Made by a program: the position numbers and the translations under genes. From Microbotryum silenes-acaulis (Eukaryota > Basidiomycota > Microbotryomycetes > Microbotryales > Microbotryaceae), in the NCBI GenBank assembly GCA_003665825.1, contig QPFY01000013.1, positions 620,001 to 684,000 on the forward strand: a stretch of DNA of 64,000 bases. The letters are read 5' to 3'. The notes under the pieces are model-generated. The model had not been told where the DNA came from. It saw only the letters and a program-made list of their open reading frames with translations, and did no database searches. Of this stretch, positions 2,097 to 28,000 are shown one piece after another; within the stretch, counting starts at the first letter, position 1, and every line of letters begins with the position of its first letter.

Positions 2097-3959
2097 TTAT
2101 TTCGTCGCGGTCGCAGTCGCCTTCTCCATCGCTTTGAGGAACGCTGGGAGTCGGCACACCGTGCCGCTTGTCAGTGTCTCGCCCTATCAGGGGGAATACT
2201 CAACTGAGTGATTTGTGTTACGGCTTTCAGAGCAAGTACTGAAAAAATGCACGTACCTTGCCGCAAACGCTCGACAGATCCATGACTTGATCGTTGACCA
2301 GAATCCTGACATAATCCGAATCACCCCCAAGGAATGAAAAGAAGCCATCCTCATACGACCCGCTGCATCGCAGACGTTCGACGACCAAACGCCCCGCGAA
2401 GGGAACCAACTTGCTTGCGACGAAGGTGCGCATAGGGCACGGAAGAGTCGGGCTCAGGGGTGCATCTTGGAAGAGCCCGATCAGACTCATAACGGGGAGC
2501 AATTGATTGTCGTACGTGAAGTCTGCGTAAATGAACTTGTCGAGGGGAAAATGTTTTGTTTCAGAGTCGATTGTGTGATTGACCTGGGTCGTATCCTTGT
2601 CGATGTAGCTACGGTCCGAAGTGAGGCGCGTTAGAAGTTCGTTGACCCAGCCAACCCCCTGCGAGCGCGCGAGGGGGGCGCCGGGATAGGCGTTGCCGTA
2701 GTATTTGCCGAGGTCGCTGTCGTACTCGATGTAGGGGAACTCGCTCTCGCGGAAGAGACCGCAAAAGGGGGAGTAACTTGACAGACTCGAACGCGCACAA
2801 ATGGGCCAAATTGACGACGTCCTGGGGACCCAACTGGTCTGGGTCAGCTCAACGTCCGGCAAAAATGTTCGTCTCTCTCTCTCCGAGAACGTACAGAAGC
2901 AGTGAGGTTATAGTCTCGGGTGTCCTGAAGCCTCTGAAGCACCGCCGGTGTCCAAACCGCTCGCCACTGTTCCTGCGCAGTCGGGACCGTGCTCGCAAGA
3001 TTGGGGCAGTTATTCGCCAAGGGGTTCTGGAGATGCTCACCCTCCGTAAAGACGACTTGGGTGGATAATGTGAAGTTTTTCTTGTATGAGTTGGGTAGTG
3101 TGGGGATCTGGGCGTCCATATATCCGCGCGACCAGTTCCCTGCCGAGTCGACAACACGCGGATGCCCCTGTGTGTGTTTAAATCGCCGTGGTGAGGTCAA
3201 TCGGTGCCTGGTGGAGCTGGCGTGAGAGCCACCGAAGAACGCACCGTCGCTCGAACAAACGGTGCACTGCAGAAGGTAAGTGCTGCAGTTGCCGAATTGC
3301 ACTTCGTTCGTTTCACGAGTTGCTTGCCCGCATCGTAAGACCTTCAAACCGGAGGCGTTACAATTAGCATGGAAGACTGTGTAAAGCGCTGATTTTCCCG
3401 ATGCAAACAAAGCAAGGTCAGAATTCACTCTTTGGCCCCATAGGGAATCAGATTTCCATCACCACCGACGTCGTAGGTGTACTTGGCGAGGAAAGTCATC
3501 TCGGATCGGGAGTAGTTCCCTTTGCCGGTAATCTTAGCGAGCGTGGCCCGGATCGACTTGCCGGCGTCGGACGTCGGCTGTCGGGCTCCATGGCGCTGCA
3601 AAAGATTCACCTGGTCGCGAAGAATTTAGAAAGAACACCAAGATTTATCAGCGACCCGGGAGGGATATCCCGAAGATGTCGCGCGTTCGACTTACTTGCG
3701 AGACCTCGCACTTGCTCGGTACGGCGCGGTATTCCTCCACCGGATAGAAGGGAGAGCTGCAGGCCACGCATCTCGGTCAGTAGCTATCTTCTCTCTGTAC
3801 CGACATCTTTCGAACTCACTATTGACCCGAATTTGTCGAATACGGTTGGGCAGCCCCGGCGGCGCATTCCGCTGCGAGCAAAGCAGCGAGCACGAGGCGC
3901 ACGGTCCCTGTCCCGCTTTCGGACCGATGCTGCTGGTTTTTTGGCTTGAGGATCAGCAT
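2097..3959 (-). pseudogene. Histidine acid phosphatase copy A, disrupted by frameshift and nonsense
   Basis: This is the first of three tandem branch-2 histidine phosphatase (phytase-like acid phosphatase) copies. Exons on the minus strand match the intact copy B one for one: 3959-3820, 3756-3696, 3610-3429, 3341-3245, 3167-2895, 2821-2257 and 2183-2097. It has an N-terminal hydrophobic signal segment and keeps the catalytic RHGARQP. Exon 6 is 565 nt where copy B has 573. An 8-nt deletion just after CAFESVK (about 2770-2785) shifts the frame. The proton-donor HD motif has become YD (DFTYDNQ). A GAA to TAA change at 2099-2097 removes the last 12 residues, including the conserved CGF. All splice sites remain intact, so decay looks recent. 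Use of an alternative acceptor 17 nt upstream of exon 6 would restore the downstream frame but would scramble about 16 conserved residues and would not restore the His. It was secreted if ever expressed. Confidence 0.85.
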
Positions 3960-4566
3960 CGTCGCAGACTCAGTGGCCGGTAAGCCGTCTTTGAAGGAAG
4001 AGGTGGTGTGGTGGGGAGAAGGAGACCAAGCAGCATTTACGTCACTTCTACTTTTGGTCAACACACCTTTCACTTCATCGACACCATCGGCCACTGCCGG
4101 AGACAAGCACAACAACTTTTTGTTCGAAGCATCGCTTCGGCCGAGTGCGCCAAATCATGCCGATCGGGGAGTCTCGCGCGGTCGATCGCCGCGTGTATGT
4201 CTCGGATCGCTTCCGATCTCGGAAACCGAAACCGGGGGCGCCGCCTCGTCTCCCTTGGGAAGACACGACTTGATCAAAAGGAAGTCGGCGCGATGCGAGT
4301 CGAGGCAGTTTCTAGGTTCCTTTTTGGATTCCTGAAGACCCTTGGAGAAAGTAACACCGCTCACAATACTACTGGGCATGAGTTCAAGTCAACCTGAGAG
4401 GTGCCGAAGAACATCGCGCGGCAAAATTTCGAAAAGCACTCAAAATTCAGGCGACTCGAACGCGCAGTTTAGATTCAGGGAGAATAAAATTTCCCAGGTT
4501 TTACACCGTCCAAAAGAAACGAGCAAGACGACGCACAATTCCGAGACGAGAACATCACCCGGTCGC
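3960..4566. other. Intergenic between phosphatase copies A and B
   Basis: The stretch holds the promoter side of copy A and the 3' flank of copy B. No CACGTG box is present here, unlike upstream of copies B and C. I find no further gene or repeat. Confidence 0.5.
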
Positions 4567-6515
4567 CTAATCACTGGGTGTGAATCCGCACTTGGCGAAC
4601 TCTTTAGTCGCAGTTGCAGTCGCCTTGGCCATTGCCTTCGTGAACGCGGCGAGTCGGCAGACAGTGCCACTTGACAATACCTCATCCTGTTGGCGAAGCG
4701 AGAGACGGACGCCGAAAATGGTTAGTAAGCAACGTGGCGCCTGGTCCGACAAAATACTATTAGGTCCACGTACCTTGCCGCAGACACTCGATAGATCCAT
4801 GATCTGGTCGTTGACGAGGATCCTAACGTACTCGGCGTCACTGCCAAAGAACGAGAAGAAGCCATCCTCGTACGATCCACTGCATTTCAGACGCTCAACC
4901 ACCATGCGGCCGGCAAAGGGGACCAGCTTGCTCGCGACGAAGGTCCTCATAGGGCAAGGCAAGGTCGGGCTTAGCGGCGCATCTTGGAAGAGGCCGATCA
5001 GGCTCATGACGGGAAGTAATTGGTTGTCGTGGGTGAAGTCGGCGTAGATGAACTTGTCGAGTGGGAAGAGGGCCGAGTTAGAATCGATCGTGTGGTTCAC
5101 TTGGGTCGTATCCTTTTCGACATATGACCGGTCCGAGGTGAGGCGCGTCAGGAGCTCATTGACATAGCCGACCCCTTGGGACCGTGCCAGTGGGGCGCCA
5201 GGGTACGCGTTGCCGTAGTATTTGCCGAGATCACTGTCGTACTCGATGTATGGGAACTCGCTGTCGCGGAAGAGACCGCACACGGGCGAAGTCGAGTTGA
5301 TTTTAAGCGAGTCGAAGGCGCAAAGGTACGCCAGATTGACAACGTCCTGATGGTAGTGGGGCAGGTGTTTAGGCCAATGCAACCACTTTAAAAGGAACTC
5401 GATCTAACTAGGAACGTACGGAAGATGTTAAATTATAGTCCTGGGTATCCTGAAGCCTTTGAAGCACCGCAGGTGTCCATACAGCTCGCCATTGCTCCTG
5501 CGCAGCCGGGACCGTGCTCGCGAGATCGGGGCAGTTGTTGGACAAGGTGTTGTTGGCATGGTCGTCTTCAGCGAAGATCACTTTTGTGGTGAACTCGTAG
5601 CTCTTTCTCGCAGTTGGGGGAATCACGGTCCGTTGGGCGTCCATGAAACCGCGGGACCAGTTGCCGGCCGAGTCGATGACCCGTTGTGACCCCTGGTTCG
5701 ATGATCAGACATGATCAGCGCAAGTCTCACCGAACAGAAATCGGAAGCGCGGGTGGCTGTTCGACTTACTGAGGCGCGAAGGAAAGGAGAAGGTTTGCAA
5801 AGAGAGAGCGCGACCATGAGCGAGTTACACATCATTCGCTTAGCGAATTGCTTGCCCGCATCGTACGACCTTTGCGACGGGTGAGGAGGACCGAGGCATC
5901 AGTAACGAACGGAGCGGGAATTAAGACCTGGCAATGACATACTCTTTAGCTCCATAGGAAATCAAAGAACCATCTTCGCCGACATTGTAGGTATAGTTGG
6001 CAAGGAAGGCCATCTCGGGGCGGGAGTAATTGCTCTTGTCGGTGAGTTTGGCGAGAGAAGCCTTGATTGACTTGCCCGAGCTGGACGTGGGCTCTCGAGC
6101 TCCATGGCGCTGTAGGAGATTGACCTGGTGCCAAGGACGACTCATAATTACTATTAGCTTATGCGAGCCATCCAAAGAAAACAAACGTGTATGATACTTG
6201 AACCTGATCCGATTGCTCGACTTACCTGTGTCACTTTGCACTTGCTGCCGGACAGCGATGGGTATTCGCCAACAGGATAGAAAGGAGAACTGCCGAACAA
6301 GGTCCTCGATTCATGAGCGTCGTCTTCGTCATATTTTTTGTCTACCAGAACAGCCAAATAACTCACTATTGCGCCGAGTTGGTCAAGTAAGGTGCGGCAG
6401 CTGTAGCTTTGCCCGTGGCTTCGGCCACGAGCAAAGCCGTCAGCACGACTCTGATGGTGCTGCTCGCTCCAGATCGGCCAGTTCGGTCTGATCGGTGCGA
6501 CGTGAGGATAAGCAT
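4567..6515 (-). CDS. Secreted histidine acid phosphatase / phytase-like, copy B (intact)
   Basis: This is a branch-2 histidine phosphatase of 486 aa, predicted to release inorganic phosphate from phosphomonoesters (possibly phytate) outside the cell. Exons on the minus strand are 6515-6367, 6289-6226, 6124-5943, 5869-5770, 5692-5420, 5346-4774 and 4686-4567. Residues about 22-42 form a signal peptide core. The catalytic RHGAREP is at residues 77-83 (His78 is the phospho-acceptor) and the HD proton-donor pair is at 362-363 (DFTHDNQ). The family block RVIDSAGNW, several N-glycosylation sequons and conserved cysteines, including the C-terminal CGF, are present. It lies between a broken copy A and a catalytically altered copy C on the same strand, so it is probably the only active enzyme of the cluster. 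A CACGTG (Pho4-type E-box) sits at 6718-6723, about 200 bp upstream. Substrate specificity cannot be told from the sequence. Confidence 0.93.
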
Positions 6516-7158
6516 GGTATCGATGGTACTCGGAATGTTCGGGAGGGTATGAGAAGGAGGTGAAGATGTGATGGCCAGACGCTGAGCTAGTTCGCAGCCT
6601 GGTCACTCGATCATTCGAGCATTGTAAAGCTTCTCGCGGTCGGCCTTCTCTAGTGCAATGGATGGAATTTATGCCATTTTGGGCAGCGCTCACGCCGATC
6701 GCGGTCTCCGCCAAGCGCACGTGCGCGCCCGAGCGCCGGCGCTTCCCAGCTCGGCAACCGCATCGCCTCAGCCGCCTCGCATTGTGCAAATCGAGAAAGA
6801 ACACAAGTCGAACACGCCTCGGGACGAGTCCTCCCCGTCTTTTTCTTTTTTCTTTTGTAATCTCAGTTCTAGTGCTGATCAATGCAGAATAAACCATGTG
6901 GGGCTAGGCAATATATTCTTGGTGGTGGCTGACAAGCACCGCCGACTCCTCTTTCGTGCTAGGATTGATTCCCTGCTCACAATTTCACGAAACCCATTGA
7001 CTGCGCCACCGCTTTCTGAGGCCCAAGACTCTCGATGGGAAGTCGATCGCCGGTGGTTCACTCACAGAAAAAAAAAGGGGGATAGTCAAAGTAACAATAC
7101 AAACAGCGTGCGCTGTTGCAGAGAAGCAAATGGGACTATCCCTCCCGGCAAGGCCCGA
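6516..7158. other. Intergenic between phosphatase copies B and C
   Basis: This stretch contains the copy B promoter and the copy C 3' flank. A palindromic GCACGTGC lies at 6717-6724. Open frames crossing it are not supported by splice logic or family conservation. Confidence 0.5.
6718..6723. promoter_or_regulatory. CACGTG E-box upstream of phosphatase copy B
   Basis: The hexamer CACGTG is the core site of the bHLH factor Pho4, which activates acid phosphatases under phosphate starvation in yeasts. It lies about 200 bp upstream of the copy B start. The hexamer also occurs elsewhere in this window (for example near 9593, 35594, 36694 and 41333), so the link to phosphate control is only an inference. 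Confidence 0.3.
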
Positions 7159-9115
7159 TCATTTCCCGAACCCACACCCCGCAAACTCTTTGGCTGCGAT
7201 TGCGTTCGCTTTGGCGAGCGCTTCGACAAAGGCCGAGCGCGTGCAGTACGTTCCTCTCTCGGTCACCTTGGACTGTCATGACCATCAAAGATAGATCGGT
7301 TAGTGTGAGCTCCTTGAAACGATCCGCTCGAGTGTGTGAAACGCGTTGAAGACCCGACTTACCTGACCGCAAAGCGAAGTGAGATCCATCGCCTGATCAT
7401 TGACCATCACACGAACAAAATCGGTACGGCCCTTGAAGATCTCGCCCCAGTACCCGCCCTCGAACGCTCCACTGCAATCCAGACTCTCCACTACCATACG
7501 TCCGGCAAAAGGCACCATCTTGCTAGAGACGAAGGACCTCATGGGACAGGGCAAGGTTGTGCTCAAGGGATCGTCTTGAAAGAAGCCTAGGATCCCGAAT
7601 ACAGCCAGCATGAGGTTGTTGTACCCGACGTCGGCGTAGAACTTTTTATCGAGGGGGAAGGTCTTGGAGTCCGAATCGAGCGTATGGTTGACTTGGGTCG
7701 TGTCCTTGTCGACGTAAGAACGGTCCGAGGTCAAGCGAGCCAAGAGCTCGTTGACGTAACCTGCACCTTGCGAGCGGGACAAAGGTGCGCCGGGGTAGGC
7801 GTTGCCGTAATACTTGTCGAGGTCACCGTCGTATTCGATGTAGGCCCACTCGTAGGATTTGAACAGCCCACAGAAGGGCGAGGTGGCATTGATCGCGTAC
7901 GAATCAAAGGCACACAGGTAGGCGAAGTTGAGCACGTCCTGCAAAGTCATATTGAGGTTAGCATCATGTGCTGTGAAAAATCGCTGCTCCCCTGGCCGAG
8001 GACTGACCGTGCTGTTCAACGCGTAGCTCTCTTCGCTCTGCAGTCTCTGTACCACAGCTGGAGTCCACACCGCTCGCCATTCGTCCTGCGCATCAGGAAC
8101 GATGCTGACCAAGTTGGGGCAGTTGTTCGAGAGAGTGTTGCGGCTGTCGCTCGTCTCGGAGATGAGGACCGAAGTTTGGATCGGGGTCTTTGTATACTGC
8201 GATGATAGGAAACCTTCGGACCAATTGCCAGCTGACTCGCGCAACCTCGTCGAAGACTGGTATCAAGATGTGGGCCACGCATGGTGAGCACAATTTAGGT
8301 CTCGTTGATTTGGTAGCAACCAATGGAAAGAGACATGCCGAAACGAGGACCCACCGAGGAGCGCAAGAACGGTGTCCCACAAAACACCTTCCCGAGAGGG
8401 CCGGAGCAGTACCTTTTGCCGAGGGTGGAGCCTGCATCGTACAACCTACAAGAACAAAACCATCCCACGCCAAGCATTTCAAGTTCAGCATGCCAACCCT
8501 GTCCGAAGGAGCCGCCTAAGGTGAAAGAAACCCGATCCGTAGTCATCAACTTGATGGTGAAAACTCACTGGCTTGCGCCAAAAGGGATCAAGCTTCCTTC
8601 GTCGCCGAGATTGTAAGTGTAGTTGGCAAGGAACGCCATCTCACTCCTTGCGTAATGCGTCTTGTTGAAGACTTTGGCTAGCGTCGCTTGCATCGACGCT
8701 GAGGGATTAGGGGCCGGTTGGCGCGCGCCGGGGGTCTGCAGGAGGTGAACCTAGCCAGGGGCAAGAGGGGTTAGCATTACATCGCCTGCTGTACGATTCA
8801 CCCGCGGGATGAACTGACCTGTTTCATTGCACAGTGCTCGCTGTACTTTTTATACTCCGCGACGGGGGTATATGCCGAGCTGTTTGCAGGGGGTAGGGGG
8901 GAGCAAGGAAAAAGTTTTCTCTTGGTTCGGATCAGCTAGATGTCTTAGTTTCTTATTGGATGGGGATGGGTGTGTGGTACTGACTTTTGACCCGAGTTAC
9001 TCTTGTAGAGAGGATCAGCGGCGGAGACGAGCTCGCTCGCCAGCACCATGATTAAGATTGTAGCCGTCCATGTCCGCGCGACGGTGCGCTTCCTGTCCGA
9101 GGTGAGGGCGATCAT
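7159..9115 (-). CDS. Histidine phosphatase-like secreted pseudoenzyme, copy C
   Basis: The third tandem paralog has 467 aa and an intact frame. Exons on the minus strand are 9115-8985, 8879-8819, 8750-8569, 8445-8355, 8256-8008, 7938-7363 and 7272-7159. Introns sit at the same places and phases as in copy B. A signal-peptide-like hydrophobic stretch lies at about residues 14-32. The catalytic RHG is replaced by TPG (LLQTPGARQP, residues 67-76) and the HD pair by YN (residues 344-345, DVGYNNLM). The fold residues around them are kept, including YIEYDGDLDKYYGNAYPGAP, SDRSYVDKDTTQVNHTLD and the cysteines. Loss of both the nucleophile and the acid makes classical phosphatase activity very unlikely, while the absence of stops, frameshifts or splice damage argues that the protein is still made. 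Possible roles are binding, decoy or structural, but none is shown. Confidence 0.9.
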
Positions 9116-11762: not shown

Positions 11763-13157
11763 TCACTGACTCAAATCACTCGGCGGCCTGACCGTCTGCG
11801 CGAACGTCAACAACCTCTTCAAGCTTTGAATATACTTTCGACTGGTCTCATCATTCAATACGTGCGCAACGTTGTTGCTAAAGATTTTTTCTCGTCCCGA
11901 ACGTTCATGAATACCGACCATGGTGACGCCGATGGGCCAAGGAGCGTTACCGATCGAGAGTCGGAGGTAGGCGTCGTTCGCGCGCAAGTATTCGCGGATC
12001 TGCATGTTGTAGGTGATTTCGGCGATCGCTTGCAGAACGTCCGGGGCCAGGTCCTGTGAAGGAGAGGAGACGGAGTGAGTAACCTGGTCATGTGTTGGTT
12101 TCGGTTTGTTGTATCTACTGACCCTCTTGCGCAAGGATTTGAAGAGCGGTTTGAGGTACTCGGCCGAGGTCTGCTGGGTCGCTGCGGCCATACGACCTTG
12201 TGTACTCCTTCGAACGGCCTCTGTGGGAAGGAGAGAGAGGTTAAGGATCGGGTATATTCGGCGTTCGGTGATTACATAACTAACCTGGTCGATCCGCAAG
12301 TGATTGTTCCCATTCCTTGAGGACTCGCTGTAGGCAAGGGGCAGACTCTGAGCTCGGAGGACAGTTGCGCTCGCGAGAAGGAACAGTGTGCCTACCTTGA
12401 GGGCATGGTATATCTGCGGGTACACCTTGTGCGGGTTGGATTTGACGAGCGATACATCGACGATGATGTCTTGGTCCTTGGGGTGGAGTAGGTTGTCTGT
12501 CCGATTCTCGCGCTCGGGCAGTAGTGGGCCATCCTCGTCTCCGACGGTGGTCGTGGTCGTTTTTTTTTTGTCGACGATTTTGGGGGTAGAAGACCTGATC
12601 TTGTCGGCGACTTGCTGCAGGTTCATATCCTTGTCGACGTTGTGCATGACGTTCATGAACTCGTTGCGTTGCCCCTCTGACCTCTCCTCGATCAACTCGA
12701 GCGCCCTGAGCCGTAACCTGCGTTCCTTGTCGGATTCGCCAAAGAGGCGTATCGGTTGGGCCTTGTAGCGCAGTCGTTTGATGGCTTCCTCGTTGGAGAT
12801 ATTGAACGCTTCGGATCTGGAGTCGGTCACTTGGGTCAGTGGTGAGAGATGTTCGGTGGTGGTGGTGGTGGTGGATGAGGAGGAGGCGACGGCGAGTGTC
12901 TGATTCGAATCGACTTCGAGTTGGGCGACCTTGAGCGCGGCGTGGAGTAAGTCTTGTCGTTGTTGCTGTTCTACCCTGATACGTTCCAGATCACCTCGTC
13001 GCATGTATTTGGTTGCATGGATTGTGCTCGTACTGGTGCTGGCTGTGGAAGGGTCGGTCGTGGTCGATGTCGATGTCGAATCGGTTGTAGTCGGTTGCGA
13101 GTGGGCCAGCTCGAGCGCACGCTTCTTGTTGGCGATCTCGGCCTTGAGAAAGTTCAT
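11763..13157 (-). CDS. PRP18: Pre-mRNA splicing factor Prp18
   Basis: This 397-aa protein is the second-step splicing factor that stabilises exon docking in the spliceosome together with Slu7. Exons on the minus strand are 13157-12396, 12327-12285, 12220-12123 and 12053-11763. The N-terminus MNFLKAEIANKKRALE matches the family. The C-terminal Prp18 domain is nearly canonical: QIYHALK, AAATQQTSAEYLKPLFKSLRKR, YLRLSIGNAPWPIGVTMVG and HVLNDETSRKYIQSLKRLLTFAQ. The 43-nt second exon is needed to restore the conserved VLKEWEQSL helix. The neighbour Cox12 is transcribed divergently from a 285-bp spacer. Confidence 0.97.
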   Translation of the reverse strand: MNFLKAEIANKKRALELAHSQPTTTDSTSTSTTTDPSTASTSTSTIHATKYMRRGDLERIRVEQQQRQDLLHAALKVAQLEVDSNQTLAVASSSSTTTTTTEHLSPLTQVTDSRSEAFNISNEEAIKRLRYKAQPIRLFGESDKERRLRLRALELIEERSEGQRNEFMNVMHNVDKDMNLQQVADKIRSSTPKIVDKKKTTTTTVGDEDGPLLPERENRTDNLLHPKDQDIIVDVSLVKSNPHKVYPQIYHALKVGTLFLLASATVLRAQSLPLAYSESSRNGNNHLRIDQVSYVITERRIYPILNLSLLPTEAVRRSTQGRMAAATQQTSAEYLKPLFKSLRKRVSRYNKPKPTHDQVTHSVSSPSQDLAPDVLQAIAEITYNMQIREYLRANDAYLRLSIGNAPWPIGVTMVGIHERSGREKIFSNNVAHVLNDETSRKYIQSLKRLLTFAQTVRPPSDLSQ

Positions 13158-25025: not shown

Positions 25026-28000
25026 ATGATTGTACCACCAACTCGACCTGACTTGGACCAGCTCCACCTTCTCACCTTTAATGTAAACTCTATTGCTGAC
25101 TTAGGGCGCCAGGAGCGTTTCCTCGTCTACCTCTCTTCCCTTTCTCCAACCCCTTCCATTGTATTTGTACAGGAGCACGGATTAAAGAGTCGATCACATC
25201 GGGAGCGCTTCGAGCGATGTTGGAAAGGGCGGGTTTTCTTCAGAGACCTTGTCGCCACCCTCATCCCGGAGCGCTCCCGCCTGTACGTCCTTTCCCCTAT
25301 TTTTCGAGACTTTCCTGACCCTCGAATACTTACTATCAACTACTTTTTGAATTCACAAACGTTATGGTGGATCGGAAATCAGTTTCTACAGAGGGACGGT
25401 CTGGATCTACCCCCACCTACTGGCGTACTCTCATCGGCCGGCTCCCTTTTGCTGTGATCGACACGATCCGATACCTGCACCCTCACTCGAACCACTTCAG
25501 CAGGCCGCATAAACAGGCGGGCAAGATCAAATCCTGGTCGCGCATCGACTACATCCTCTTGTCGGAACAACATGCTCATCTGCTGGTCTCGGGGACCACG
25601 TACCTCGACGCGCTCCTCTCGGACCATCGCCCCGTGTATGTGGGGATCGCCTGCCCATCCGCCAAAAGCACGCCGGCCCTGCCCTCGCTCCCGGAAACGT
25701 CGTCCCAGCTGCTACGAGTCAACACACGAGTCTACGCCGACGAAGCCTTTGCAGCTCGCATACCTTTCATCATCGACGCATCTCGCGAGTCCCACCCGCT
25801 CGATCCGCTTGCGGCTTTTGAGGAAGCGATGTCTCGACTCAGATCTGCCTCGAGTGACCATGCTCGCCACCTGAATCGGCAATTTTCGACGACAAAGGAA
25901 ACGCTCGAGCGTCGTATCCATGAGCTCGAAGCACTCGGTACTTTCGACGACGGGAGACGAGCCGAATGGCAAGATCTGGTGGCCATGACCAAGGTTTTGA
26001 TCCTCGACCGAGCCCGTCAAATGAGGATTCGTGCGCACATCCCGGAACTCAGCTCGGAGGAGCAGCTCTCCCACACGGTCCATGCACGACTCACTGCTCG
26101 CCGAACGGCCATCAAGATCGACACCCTTCGTCTGGCGGATGGGTCGCCCTCAACGGACCTTACCAAGTGCTTGGACCACGCGCGAGCATACTTCCAAGAC
26201 CACCACACGCCAGATGATCGCGATCCCGCTCAAGTCGAAGCTGCTCGCTCTACCCTTCTTGATCCCGTACGATGCGCTTTACCAAGAGGCAAGAAGCACT
26301 CCAATTCAAGGTTCATGAGGCCGATGACTGCGCGACACGCCAAGCTGCTCGAGGAACCTTTCACTGCCGACGAGTTTGCAGCCGCAATTGCCAAGACTGA
26401 CAAGGGCCGAAGTCCAGGAGCGAGCGGGCTACCCTACGAGATGTATCAGTCCTCCCCAACCGTCTTTGCGGAGCTACTGGCCTCGACTTGCAATGAGGCG
26501 TGGGCGAAAGGTGCTCTGCCTGAATCGATGACCAAAGGAACTGTCCGCCTCCTCAAAAAGTCAAAGCCTGACGCTGACTACTCGGACCTCAAGTACTACC
26601 GCCCGATCACGCTTCGCGAGTGCTCGTACAAGTTGATGACCAAGGTCCTCGTAGCAAGGCTGAACAAAGTGCTGCCATCCGTTCTTCCCCCTTCACAACA
26701 TGGTTTCATGCCTGGTCGAAAGGCCTCAGACGCGGGAAGTCACTTGTCCCTGCTCCTTGAACAAATTCGCTCCCTTGACCTTGCTGACTCGGCTCTCCTA
26801 TCGCTTGATCAGGAAAGCGCATATGACCTAGTTGATCATGACTGGATCATGAGCGTCTTTCGAGCGATGGGAGCGCCAGAACGCTTCCTTGGCCTTTTCA
26901 ACGTTATCTACAGATCGGTGTCACTTCGTTACATCATCAATGGGATACCTCACGGAGGCTGTGCGCATGCTGTGCGGGCTCGGGCAAGGAGATCCCGTGA
27001 GTTGTCCCATCTGGAACGTGTGCTTTCAGCCCTACCTCGATGCCCTAGTGAGGAGAACAATTGCCCTTGATCTCAGTGCAGTATTTCTTCCCACCCGGGC
27101 TGCAATCCTCACCCACCTCGCCTTTGCGGACGATGCGATCGTGCTCGTCTCGTCACCGGCAGCACTCGATCTCCTGACTGGTCTCGCCGTCGATTGGCGC
27201 TTGGCTACAAACGGACGCTCGAACACGGCCAAGACGACTGCTCTCCCTCTCGGCTTGGGCTGGACTTAGGACGAGCGGGCTAGCGGGATCGCTTCTGTGC
27301 GCGCTGGTGAGTGCATGACTTGGGCTGGCTATCCGGTTTCCATCGACGGCAATCTCTCGCTCTTCTAGAGCACGACACTCAACCGAGCAAAGGCTCGACT
27401 GGAGGCAGCGGCGAATCGACGTGTTCCCCCACGGGCTCGCGCGATGTACGCCAACTCGTATGTCACTTCGAGGGTCATCCACTTGCTGTCGTTCGACATC
27501 CCGCCCGTCACTTTCGTCGACGCTTTCGAACAAGCGCTCATCTCCTTCGTGTGGCACAACGACTCCTTCCGACCCGTGACAAAAGAGGCGGTCTTCCTCC
27601 GTCGCGATCTTGGTGGATTGGGCCTGCTGAGCATCGAGGACATTGTTTGCTCTATGGCGATCCGGTTCTGGGACTGCGTTGCCCATGGCTTCGAGCCGAT
27701 CTGGGCTACACTCGCACGGATCAGCTGGGAGCGCACATATCCGGAAGAAACGTCGATTTGGTCAACACTGATTGCCTCACCTCGCCGCGCAACCCACGCG
27801 CGGTGGACGAAGGTCATCAACGTTGCGCGACTGATGCAGCCCCATGTGTTCCCAGAGCTCCTTCGGTCGACCGAGGTGCTCGTGATCCCACCTACTCTGC
27901 CTTCCTTACACCCACAAGGCCTGTCGGACGATGCGCGCAAGCGGCTCAAAAAGTTTGGGGCAATCATCGATCTTTACCGGAGGCCTCAGACGACAGGGGA

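What the first reader, a model, noticed from the sequence alone, without database searches (positions are those of the whole stretch)
2097..9115. Three tandem phosphatase paralogs caught at three stages: broken, active, pseudoenzyme
The copies share seven exons with identical phases, so they arose by local duplication. Only copy B keeps both catalytic motifs (RHGxRxP and HD). Copy A has RHG but YD in place of HD, an 8-nt deletion and a nonsense codon. Copy C has TPG and YN but no disruption. One locus therefore shows gene death and conversion to a pseudoenzyme side by side.
Basis: partly seen in the sequence, partly recalled or inferred. Interest (0 to 1): 0.75.

Follow-up and report, generated by a model that had tools for sequence, protein, structure and literature searches.

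The report
Mostly dead phytase family in Microbotryum
Three neighbouring genes for phytase-like proteins in an anther-smut fungus belong to a family in which most of the members examined have lost catalytic residues; one of the three looks active, one is an old conserved non-enzyme and one has recently broken.

Summary
The window is from a Microbotryum (anther smut) genome. Copies A, B and C are relatives of fungal 3-phytase A with seven exons of matching phase. B alone has RHGxR plus HD. C has TPG/YN and an open frame. A has RHG/YD, an 8-nt deletion and a TAA. They are not successive stages of one process: RHG/YD occurs in an uninterrupted M. intermedium protein, so A's altered motif is older than its broken frame, and C's losses are shared with other species. 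The pattern is genus-wide: 14 of 15 assessable Microbotryum hits fail the RHGxR-plus-HD test, against 9 of 180 hits from other organisms. C lost 4 of 6 catalytic residues but changed only 5 of 58 other conserved positions (B: 7 of 59), and is about as conserved between species as its neighbour Prp18. Best reading: C, and a second intact copy D2, are maintained pseudoenzymes; B is probably the only active member of this clade in this genome; A is a recent pseudogene. Secretion and biochemical role are inferred; a bodyguard decoy is the leading guess.

The parts
2097..3959 (-). Copy A: phytase-A-like gene, 7 exons, RHG at 3595-3587, YD at 2514-2509; pseudogene in this assembly
2774..2775 (-). 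Site of the 8-nt deletion in exon 6 of copy A (565 nt against 573 in B); placing within a few bases ambiguous
2097..2099 (-). TAA stop in exon 7 of copy A where B has GAG
4567..6515 (-). Copy B: phytase-A-like gene, 486 aa, all six catalytic positions kept; RHG at 6109-6101, HD at 5031-5026
7159..9115 (-). Copy C: intact 467-aa pseudoenzyme, TPG at 8735-8727, YN at 7623-7618
11763..13157 (-). Prp18 orthologue, near neighbour of the cluster here and, by locus tags, in three other Microbotryum species; yardstick for protein divergence
2839..2894 (-). Possible shorter intron 5 of copy A: an AG 17 nt upstream of the usual acceptor would give an open frame into exon 6; speculative
   Evidence: intron printed; acceptor and frame worked out by hand from it

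Best explanation
The three genes are one arm of a Microbotryum-specific expansion of 3-phytase-A-like proteins. After old duplications most lineages lost the phosphohistidine-forming centre but kept the rest of the conserved scaffold. B is the only copy of this clade in this genome that keeps all six catalytic residues, and is probably a working phytase or acid phosphatase. C, and D2 on another contig, are maintained pseudoenzymes. A was a long-maintained RHG/YD variant and has recently become a pseudogene. Shown by sequence: gene structures, motif losses, clades, neighbouring Prp18, cross-species conservation, predicted fold of the B and C orthologues. Inferred: secretion (only a hydrophobic N-terminus was seen), expression, inactivity of C and D2, activity of B. 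Proposed mechanism: C and its kind are secreted beside B and act through the enzyme's outer surface, for instance by occupying a plant inhibitor or receptor that would otherwise meet B (a bodyguard decoy). I put that specific role at about 0.3; regulation of B and binding of phosphorylated ligands are the alternatives.
Against: No RNA, protein or enzyme data. No DNA of other Microbotryum species was at hand, so no orthologue dN/dS; the A-B ratio averages both branches, and synonymous sites against C are saturated. The scaffold test is clear for C, its M. lychnidis-dioicae orthologue and M. saponariae 06132 (0.017), but not for D2 (0.12), M. saponariae 3339 (0.092) or 3340 (0.089); six tests, uncorrected. 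C differs from A, B and D2 together at 34 residues, so its branch is long. C's motif letters differ between species (TPG, LSG), which fits relaxed constraint at the pocket. B has E after RHGAR, seen in 0 of 180 other rows with a letter there, so B's activity may be unusual. Nothing here shows contact with a plant protein.
Confidence: 0.72

Rival explanations
1. One reading: one locus showing successive stages (active, pseudoenzyme, dead) of a single ongoing process.
For: The three states do sit side by side.
Against: RHG/YD is found in an uninterrupted M. intermedium protein and in M. silenes-dioicae, so A's motif change is older than its break; loss of RHG in C's clade is shared with M. lychnidis-dioicae and M. 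intermedium; A-B dS is 1.44.
Confidence: 0.1
2. C (and D2) are drifting copies without function that have not yet taken a stop.
For: Motif letters vary inside the C clade (TPG, LSG); four related copies in this genome (A, D1, E, F) are broken, so death is common in the family; the scaffold test is not significant for D2.
Against: C is 95.5% identical to its M. lychnidis-dioicae orthologue, Prp18 93.4%; C keeps 53 of 58 non-catalytic conserved columns, the same number of Cys as B (11), and GT/AG at every intron.
Confidence: 0.15
3. The inactive paralogues bind phosphorylated ligands (phytate, inositol phosphates) without hydrolysis, or pair with and regulate B.
For: C keeps two of the catalytic-site arginines (the R of GAR and of FLRSS); D-clade database proteins keep HD and the distal R; an H18A mutant of E. 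coli glucose-1-phosphatase was crystallised with its substrate (title of 1nt4), so a nucleophile-less enzyme can still bind.
Against: The pocket letters differ between C orthologues; the D clade has also lost the R of GAR; no evidence of oligomers.
Confidence: 0.3
4. Copy A is still expressed through an alternative acceptor in intron 5 that gives an open frame into exon 6.
For: An AG 17 nt upstream of the usual acceptor has the right frame (17-8=9; hand reading of the intron printed).
Against: It would replace a conserved stretch and leave the TAA, which removes the C-terminal Cys; one AG in three has the right frame by chance.
Confidence: 0.07
5. Assembly or strain artefact.
Against: C's motif losses recur in genomes of other species. 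A's deletion and stop remain unverified; an 8-nt gap is not a usual homopolymer slip (general knowledge).
Confidence: 0.04
6. The family lost catalysis at its base and the A/B lineage regained it.
For: With changes allowed both ways the nucleophile His needs only 2 changes on the tree, which one early loss and one regain would satisfy.
Against: The replacing residues differ between lineages (N, G, D, P, S), as expected of separate losses on long branches; regain needs several exact substitutions. Ancestral states could not be computed.
Confidence: 0.06

Closest known systems
Fungal 3-phytase A (Aspergillus niger/fumigatus; PDB 1ihp, 3k4p, 1qwo), His_Phos_2, histidine phosphatase superfamily branch 2
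   Different: C lacks four and D2 three of the six catalytic residues; A lacks one and is broken
Bodyguard decoy pair PsXEG1/PsXLP1 of Phytophthora sojae (passages of review PMC5814044 seen; original paper not seen)
   Same: Enzyme with an inactive paralogue
   Different: PsXLP1 is truncated and its host inhibitor is known; here the inactive copies are full length and several, and no host partner is known
RALPH RNase-like effectors of powdery mildew (PMC6464244, passages incl. abstract)
   Same: Expanded set of proteins with an enzyme fold lacking active-site residues in a plant-parasitic fungus
   Different: Other fold; larger set; function tested there, not here
Beetle GH28 polygalacturonase pseudoenzymes (PMC6549527, passages incl. 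abstract)
   Same: Multigene family mixing active and inactive copies
   Different: Digestive enzymes of an insect; gene-silencing data exist there

Membership tests
Fungal 3-phytase A / His_Phos_2 (by homology) | Domain-wide sequence match and fold | tested here: met
   PF00328 for ORF pieces of A, B, C and for proteins P0005, P0010, P0002 of the C, D2 and A clades; PDB phytases for B and C; folds of P0001 and P0005
Active branch-2 histidine phosphatase: copy B | RHGxRxP nucleophile motif, distal Arg and HD motif | tested here: met
   0 of 6 catalytic columns changed
Active branch-2 histidine phosphatase: copy C | Same six residues | tested here: not met
   4 of 6 changed: R77T, H78P, H362Y, D363N in B numbering
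Active branch-2 histidine phosphatase: copy A | Same six residues in an open frame | tested here: not met
   H362Y; 8-nt deletion and TAA
Active phytase: copy B | Hydrolysis of phytate | not testable with these tools
   No assay
Maintained pseudoenzyme: copy C | Catalytic residues lost, scaffold conserved across species | tested here: met
   p 0.0026; 95.5% identity to the M. lychnidis-dioicae orthologue; no codon-level test was possible
Maintained pseudoenzyme: copy D2 | Same | tested here: inconclusive
   95.5% identity to M. saponariae 3339, but scaffold test p 0.12
Pseudogene: copy A | Disrupted frame | tested here: met
   sequence errors not excluded
Bodyguard decoy | Inactive paralogue binds the inhibitor of the active enzyme | not tested
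   No binding data; host inhibitor unknown
Secreted protein | Signal peptide | tested here: inconclusive
   Hydrophobic N-terminal stretch seen by eye in A, B, C, D2; no signal-peptide program was available

The most novel reading that the evidence does not exclude
Anther-smut fungi have turned a phosphate-scavenging phytase into a family of about ten gene lineages, eight of them without the catalytic nucleophile, lost several times over while the scaffold stayed under selection. The dead members act at the plant surface as non-catalytic proteins, such as decoys shielding the active copy B from a plant inhibitor or receptor.
Probability: 0.3. Interest if true: 0.75.

Novelty: new variant of a known kind. 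Interest (0 to 1): 0.6.

Why it matters
In other organisms nearly all of the phytase relatives found here keep their catalytic residues (171 of 180). A genus in which the family expands while repeatedly losing catalysis is a natural experiment on what the phytase fold can do without chemistry. Because canonical-looking, inactive and newly broken copies exist in several host-specific species, the question of what selects for pseudoenzymes in a plant parasite becomes testable by gene removal and binding assays.

Tried and rejected
Three-stage reading: rejected because relatives show that A's and C's motif changes are older than A's break. Recent conversion within this genome as the source of A/B similarity: no tract of near identity (A-B exon 6 79%, other exons 63-75%, introns 43-57%). 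Presence or absence of B in each species: not decidable, because hits are 90% clusters whose other members are not named, and only the best 120 of 192 and of 123 were listed. dN/dS against C: saturated. Literature, in a library without most subscription journals: Microbotryum + phytase, 3 papers whose titles concern other subjects, none read; phytase + pseudoenzyme, 0; four locus tags, 0; Microbotryum + histidine phosphatase, 0; pseudophosphatase + histidine phosphatase superfamily, 2, on amoebae by title or abstract, not read; histidine acid phosphatase + catalytically inactive + fungi, 5 listed, not read; pseudoenzyme + effector + fungal pathogen + secreted, 11 listed, two opened for passages. 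PMC4469406: a find in its main text gave 0 places for 'phosphatase'. Scans of viral and prokaryote contigs were not used, as they would not hold this fungus.

Full report
Identity of the window. The window lies in a 29.85-Mb genome of 88 contigs (C13:620001-684000). Its phytase-like proteins have their nearest relatives in Microbotryum saponariae, M. intermedium, M. silenes-dioicae and M. lychnidis-dioicae. Its Prp18 shares 93.3%, 92.7% and 93.4% of aligned residues with M. saponariae, M. silenes-dioicae and M. lychnidis-dioicae (BLAST gave 83, 86 and 78% with gaps). It is therefore a Microbotryum, at some distance from those named species. By locus tags the cluster sits near Prp18 elsewhere too: C009g05655 beside 05650 and 05652 in M. 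silenes-dioicae, Chr3-3g06389 beside 06392 in M. saponariae, MVLG_02473 beside MVLG_02471 in M. lychnidis-dioicae. That tag numbers follow gene order is my assumption.

The observation. Gene models by homology and splice signals give seven exons each. End phases are 2,0,2,0,0,0 in B and C, and in A up to its deletion. B is open (486 aa), C is open (467 aa), A carries an 8-nt deletion in exon 6 (565 against 573 nt) and a TAA in exon 7. ORF pieces of all three match PF00328, and the best solved structure by sequence for B and for C is A. niger phytase. The names R58, H59, R62, R142, H338 and D339 in my scripts are A. niger numbering from memory; in B they are R77, H78, R81, R163, H362 and D363.

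The family in this genome. PF00328 and B-based searches find, besides A-B-C: a pair on C14, D2 intact (465 aa, TNGAS and HDD; its fourth intron has another phase) and D1 broken (SNGAS, QDD, shifted frame and stops); E on C12 broken (RNGAS, SDD); and F on C19, a broken piece in which I found neither motif region (D1, E and F read by eye). A gene on C15 with a different exon layout has RHGARYP and HDT and matches B's last two exons at 30%; I take it for another acid-phosphatase type outside this clade, so B is the only canonical copy of the clade, not of the whole superfamily in the genome. Other PF00328 matches on C16 and C11 are more distant. One of six copies with both motif regions is canonical.

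The family in the genus. One search aligned 208 database hits with four proteins of this genome. Seventeen hits are Microbotryum. P0018 lacks the first motif region and the N-terminus of P0013 is unrelated gene-model sequence, which leaves 15; only P0001 passes the RHGxR plus HD test. Two (P0002, P0004) are RHG with YD; 12 lack the nucleophile His. Among 191 other hits 11 are partial; of the 180 complete ones 171 pass and nine fail, two of these (P0205, P0208) only around the glycine and four (P0041, P0060, P0093, P0098) only at the Asp of HD. Failing hits thus also occur singly outside Microbotryum. The Microbotryum rows form one clade (100/99) with Leucosporidium and other canonical Microbotryomycetes outside. 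A's clade is A, M. silenes-dioicae 05650 and M. intermedium 7710 (98/97); B's is B and M. saponariae 06392 (100/99); C's is C, MVLG_02471, 05652 and M. intermedium 7709 (100/100); A+B+C has 90/96 or 85/88. The fewest changes on the tree, either direction allowed, are 2 for the nucleophile His and 3 for the HD His. If losses only are allowed, the tree implies at least three for the nucleophile (my reading of the tree, not a computed figure). I count ten Microbotryum lineages in the tree, eight without the nucleophile.

In M. silenes-dioicae the A protein reads through the site of the deletion but its annotated sequence ends soon after YD (362 aa). In M. intermedium it is complete apart from what looks like a retained intron (505 aa). 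The break in the window is therefore lineage-specific. An upstream AG in intron 5 would give an open frame into exon 6; this is a hand reading and I give it little weight.

Exchange between copies. M. intermedium 7709 is C-like for about its first two thirds and then almost identical to 7710 (40/40 against 23/40 to C in one block), which suggests conversion or unequal crossover there. Its YD is therefore not independent evidence on C.

Mechanism. Branch-2 histidine phosphatases work through a phosphohistidine; without the His and HD, C should not do this chemistry (established knowledge of the superfamily). One canonical beside several non-canonical copies resembles the bodyguard decoy PsXLP1 (PMC5814044, passages), RALPH pseudo-RNases (PMC6464244, passages including the abstract) and beetle GH28 pseudoenzymes (PMC6549527, passages including the abstract). 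The Microbotryum secretome study PMC6831777 (abstract, section 6 and one passage of the discussion seen; [quoted passage not shown] I did not see whether these genes were among them. Against a simple story: B itself has Glu after RHGAR, absent from the 180 other rows with a letter there, and C's motif letters differ between species.

Noticed in passing
L010 7429-5351 (own genome C14): Intact second pseudoenzyme D2: TNGAS replaces RHGAR while HD is kept; its intron 4 has a different phase from A, B and C.
   Followed up: partly
P0003 (M. intermedium BQ2448_7709): Chimeric copy: C-like N-terminal part, C-terminal part nearly identical to its neighbour 7710.
   Followed up: partly
P0004 (M. silenes-dioicae BQ5605_C009g05650): Copy A without the 8-nt deletion, yet its annotated protein ends just after YD; perhaps a separate break or a gene-model fault.
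   Followed up: no
window 6109-6089: B reads RHGAREP; Glu at this place is seen in none of the 180 non-Microbotryum rows with a letter there.
   Followed up: partly
L010 about 4500-2600, L011 about 4100-2250, L014 about 2700-3450: Three further broken relatives (D1, E, F). By eye their M. saponariae counterparts are P0011 (506 aa) and P0121 (519 aa), uninterrupted, and P0016 (354 aa), itself short; so different copies die in different species.
   Followed up: partly
window 25364-27070: Reverse transcriptase ORF (PF00078), perhaps part of a retroelement.
   Followed up: no
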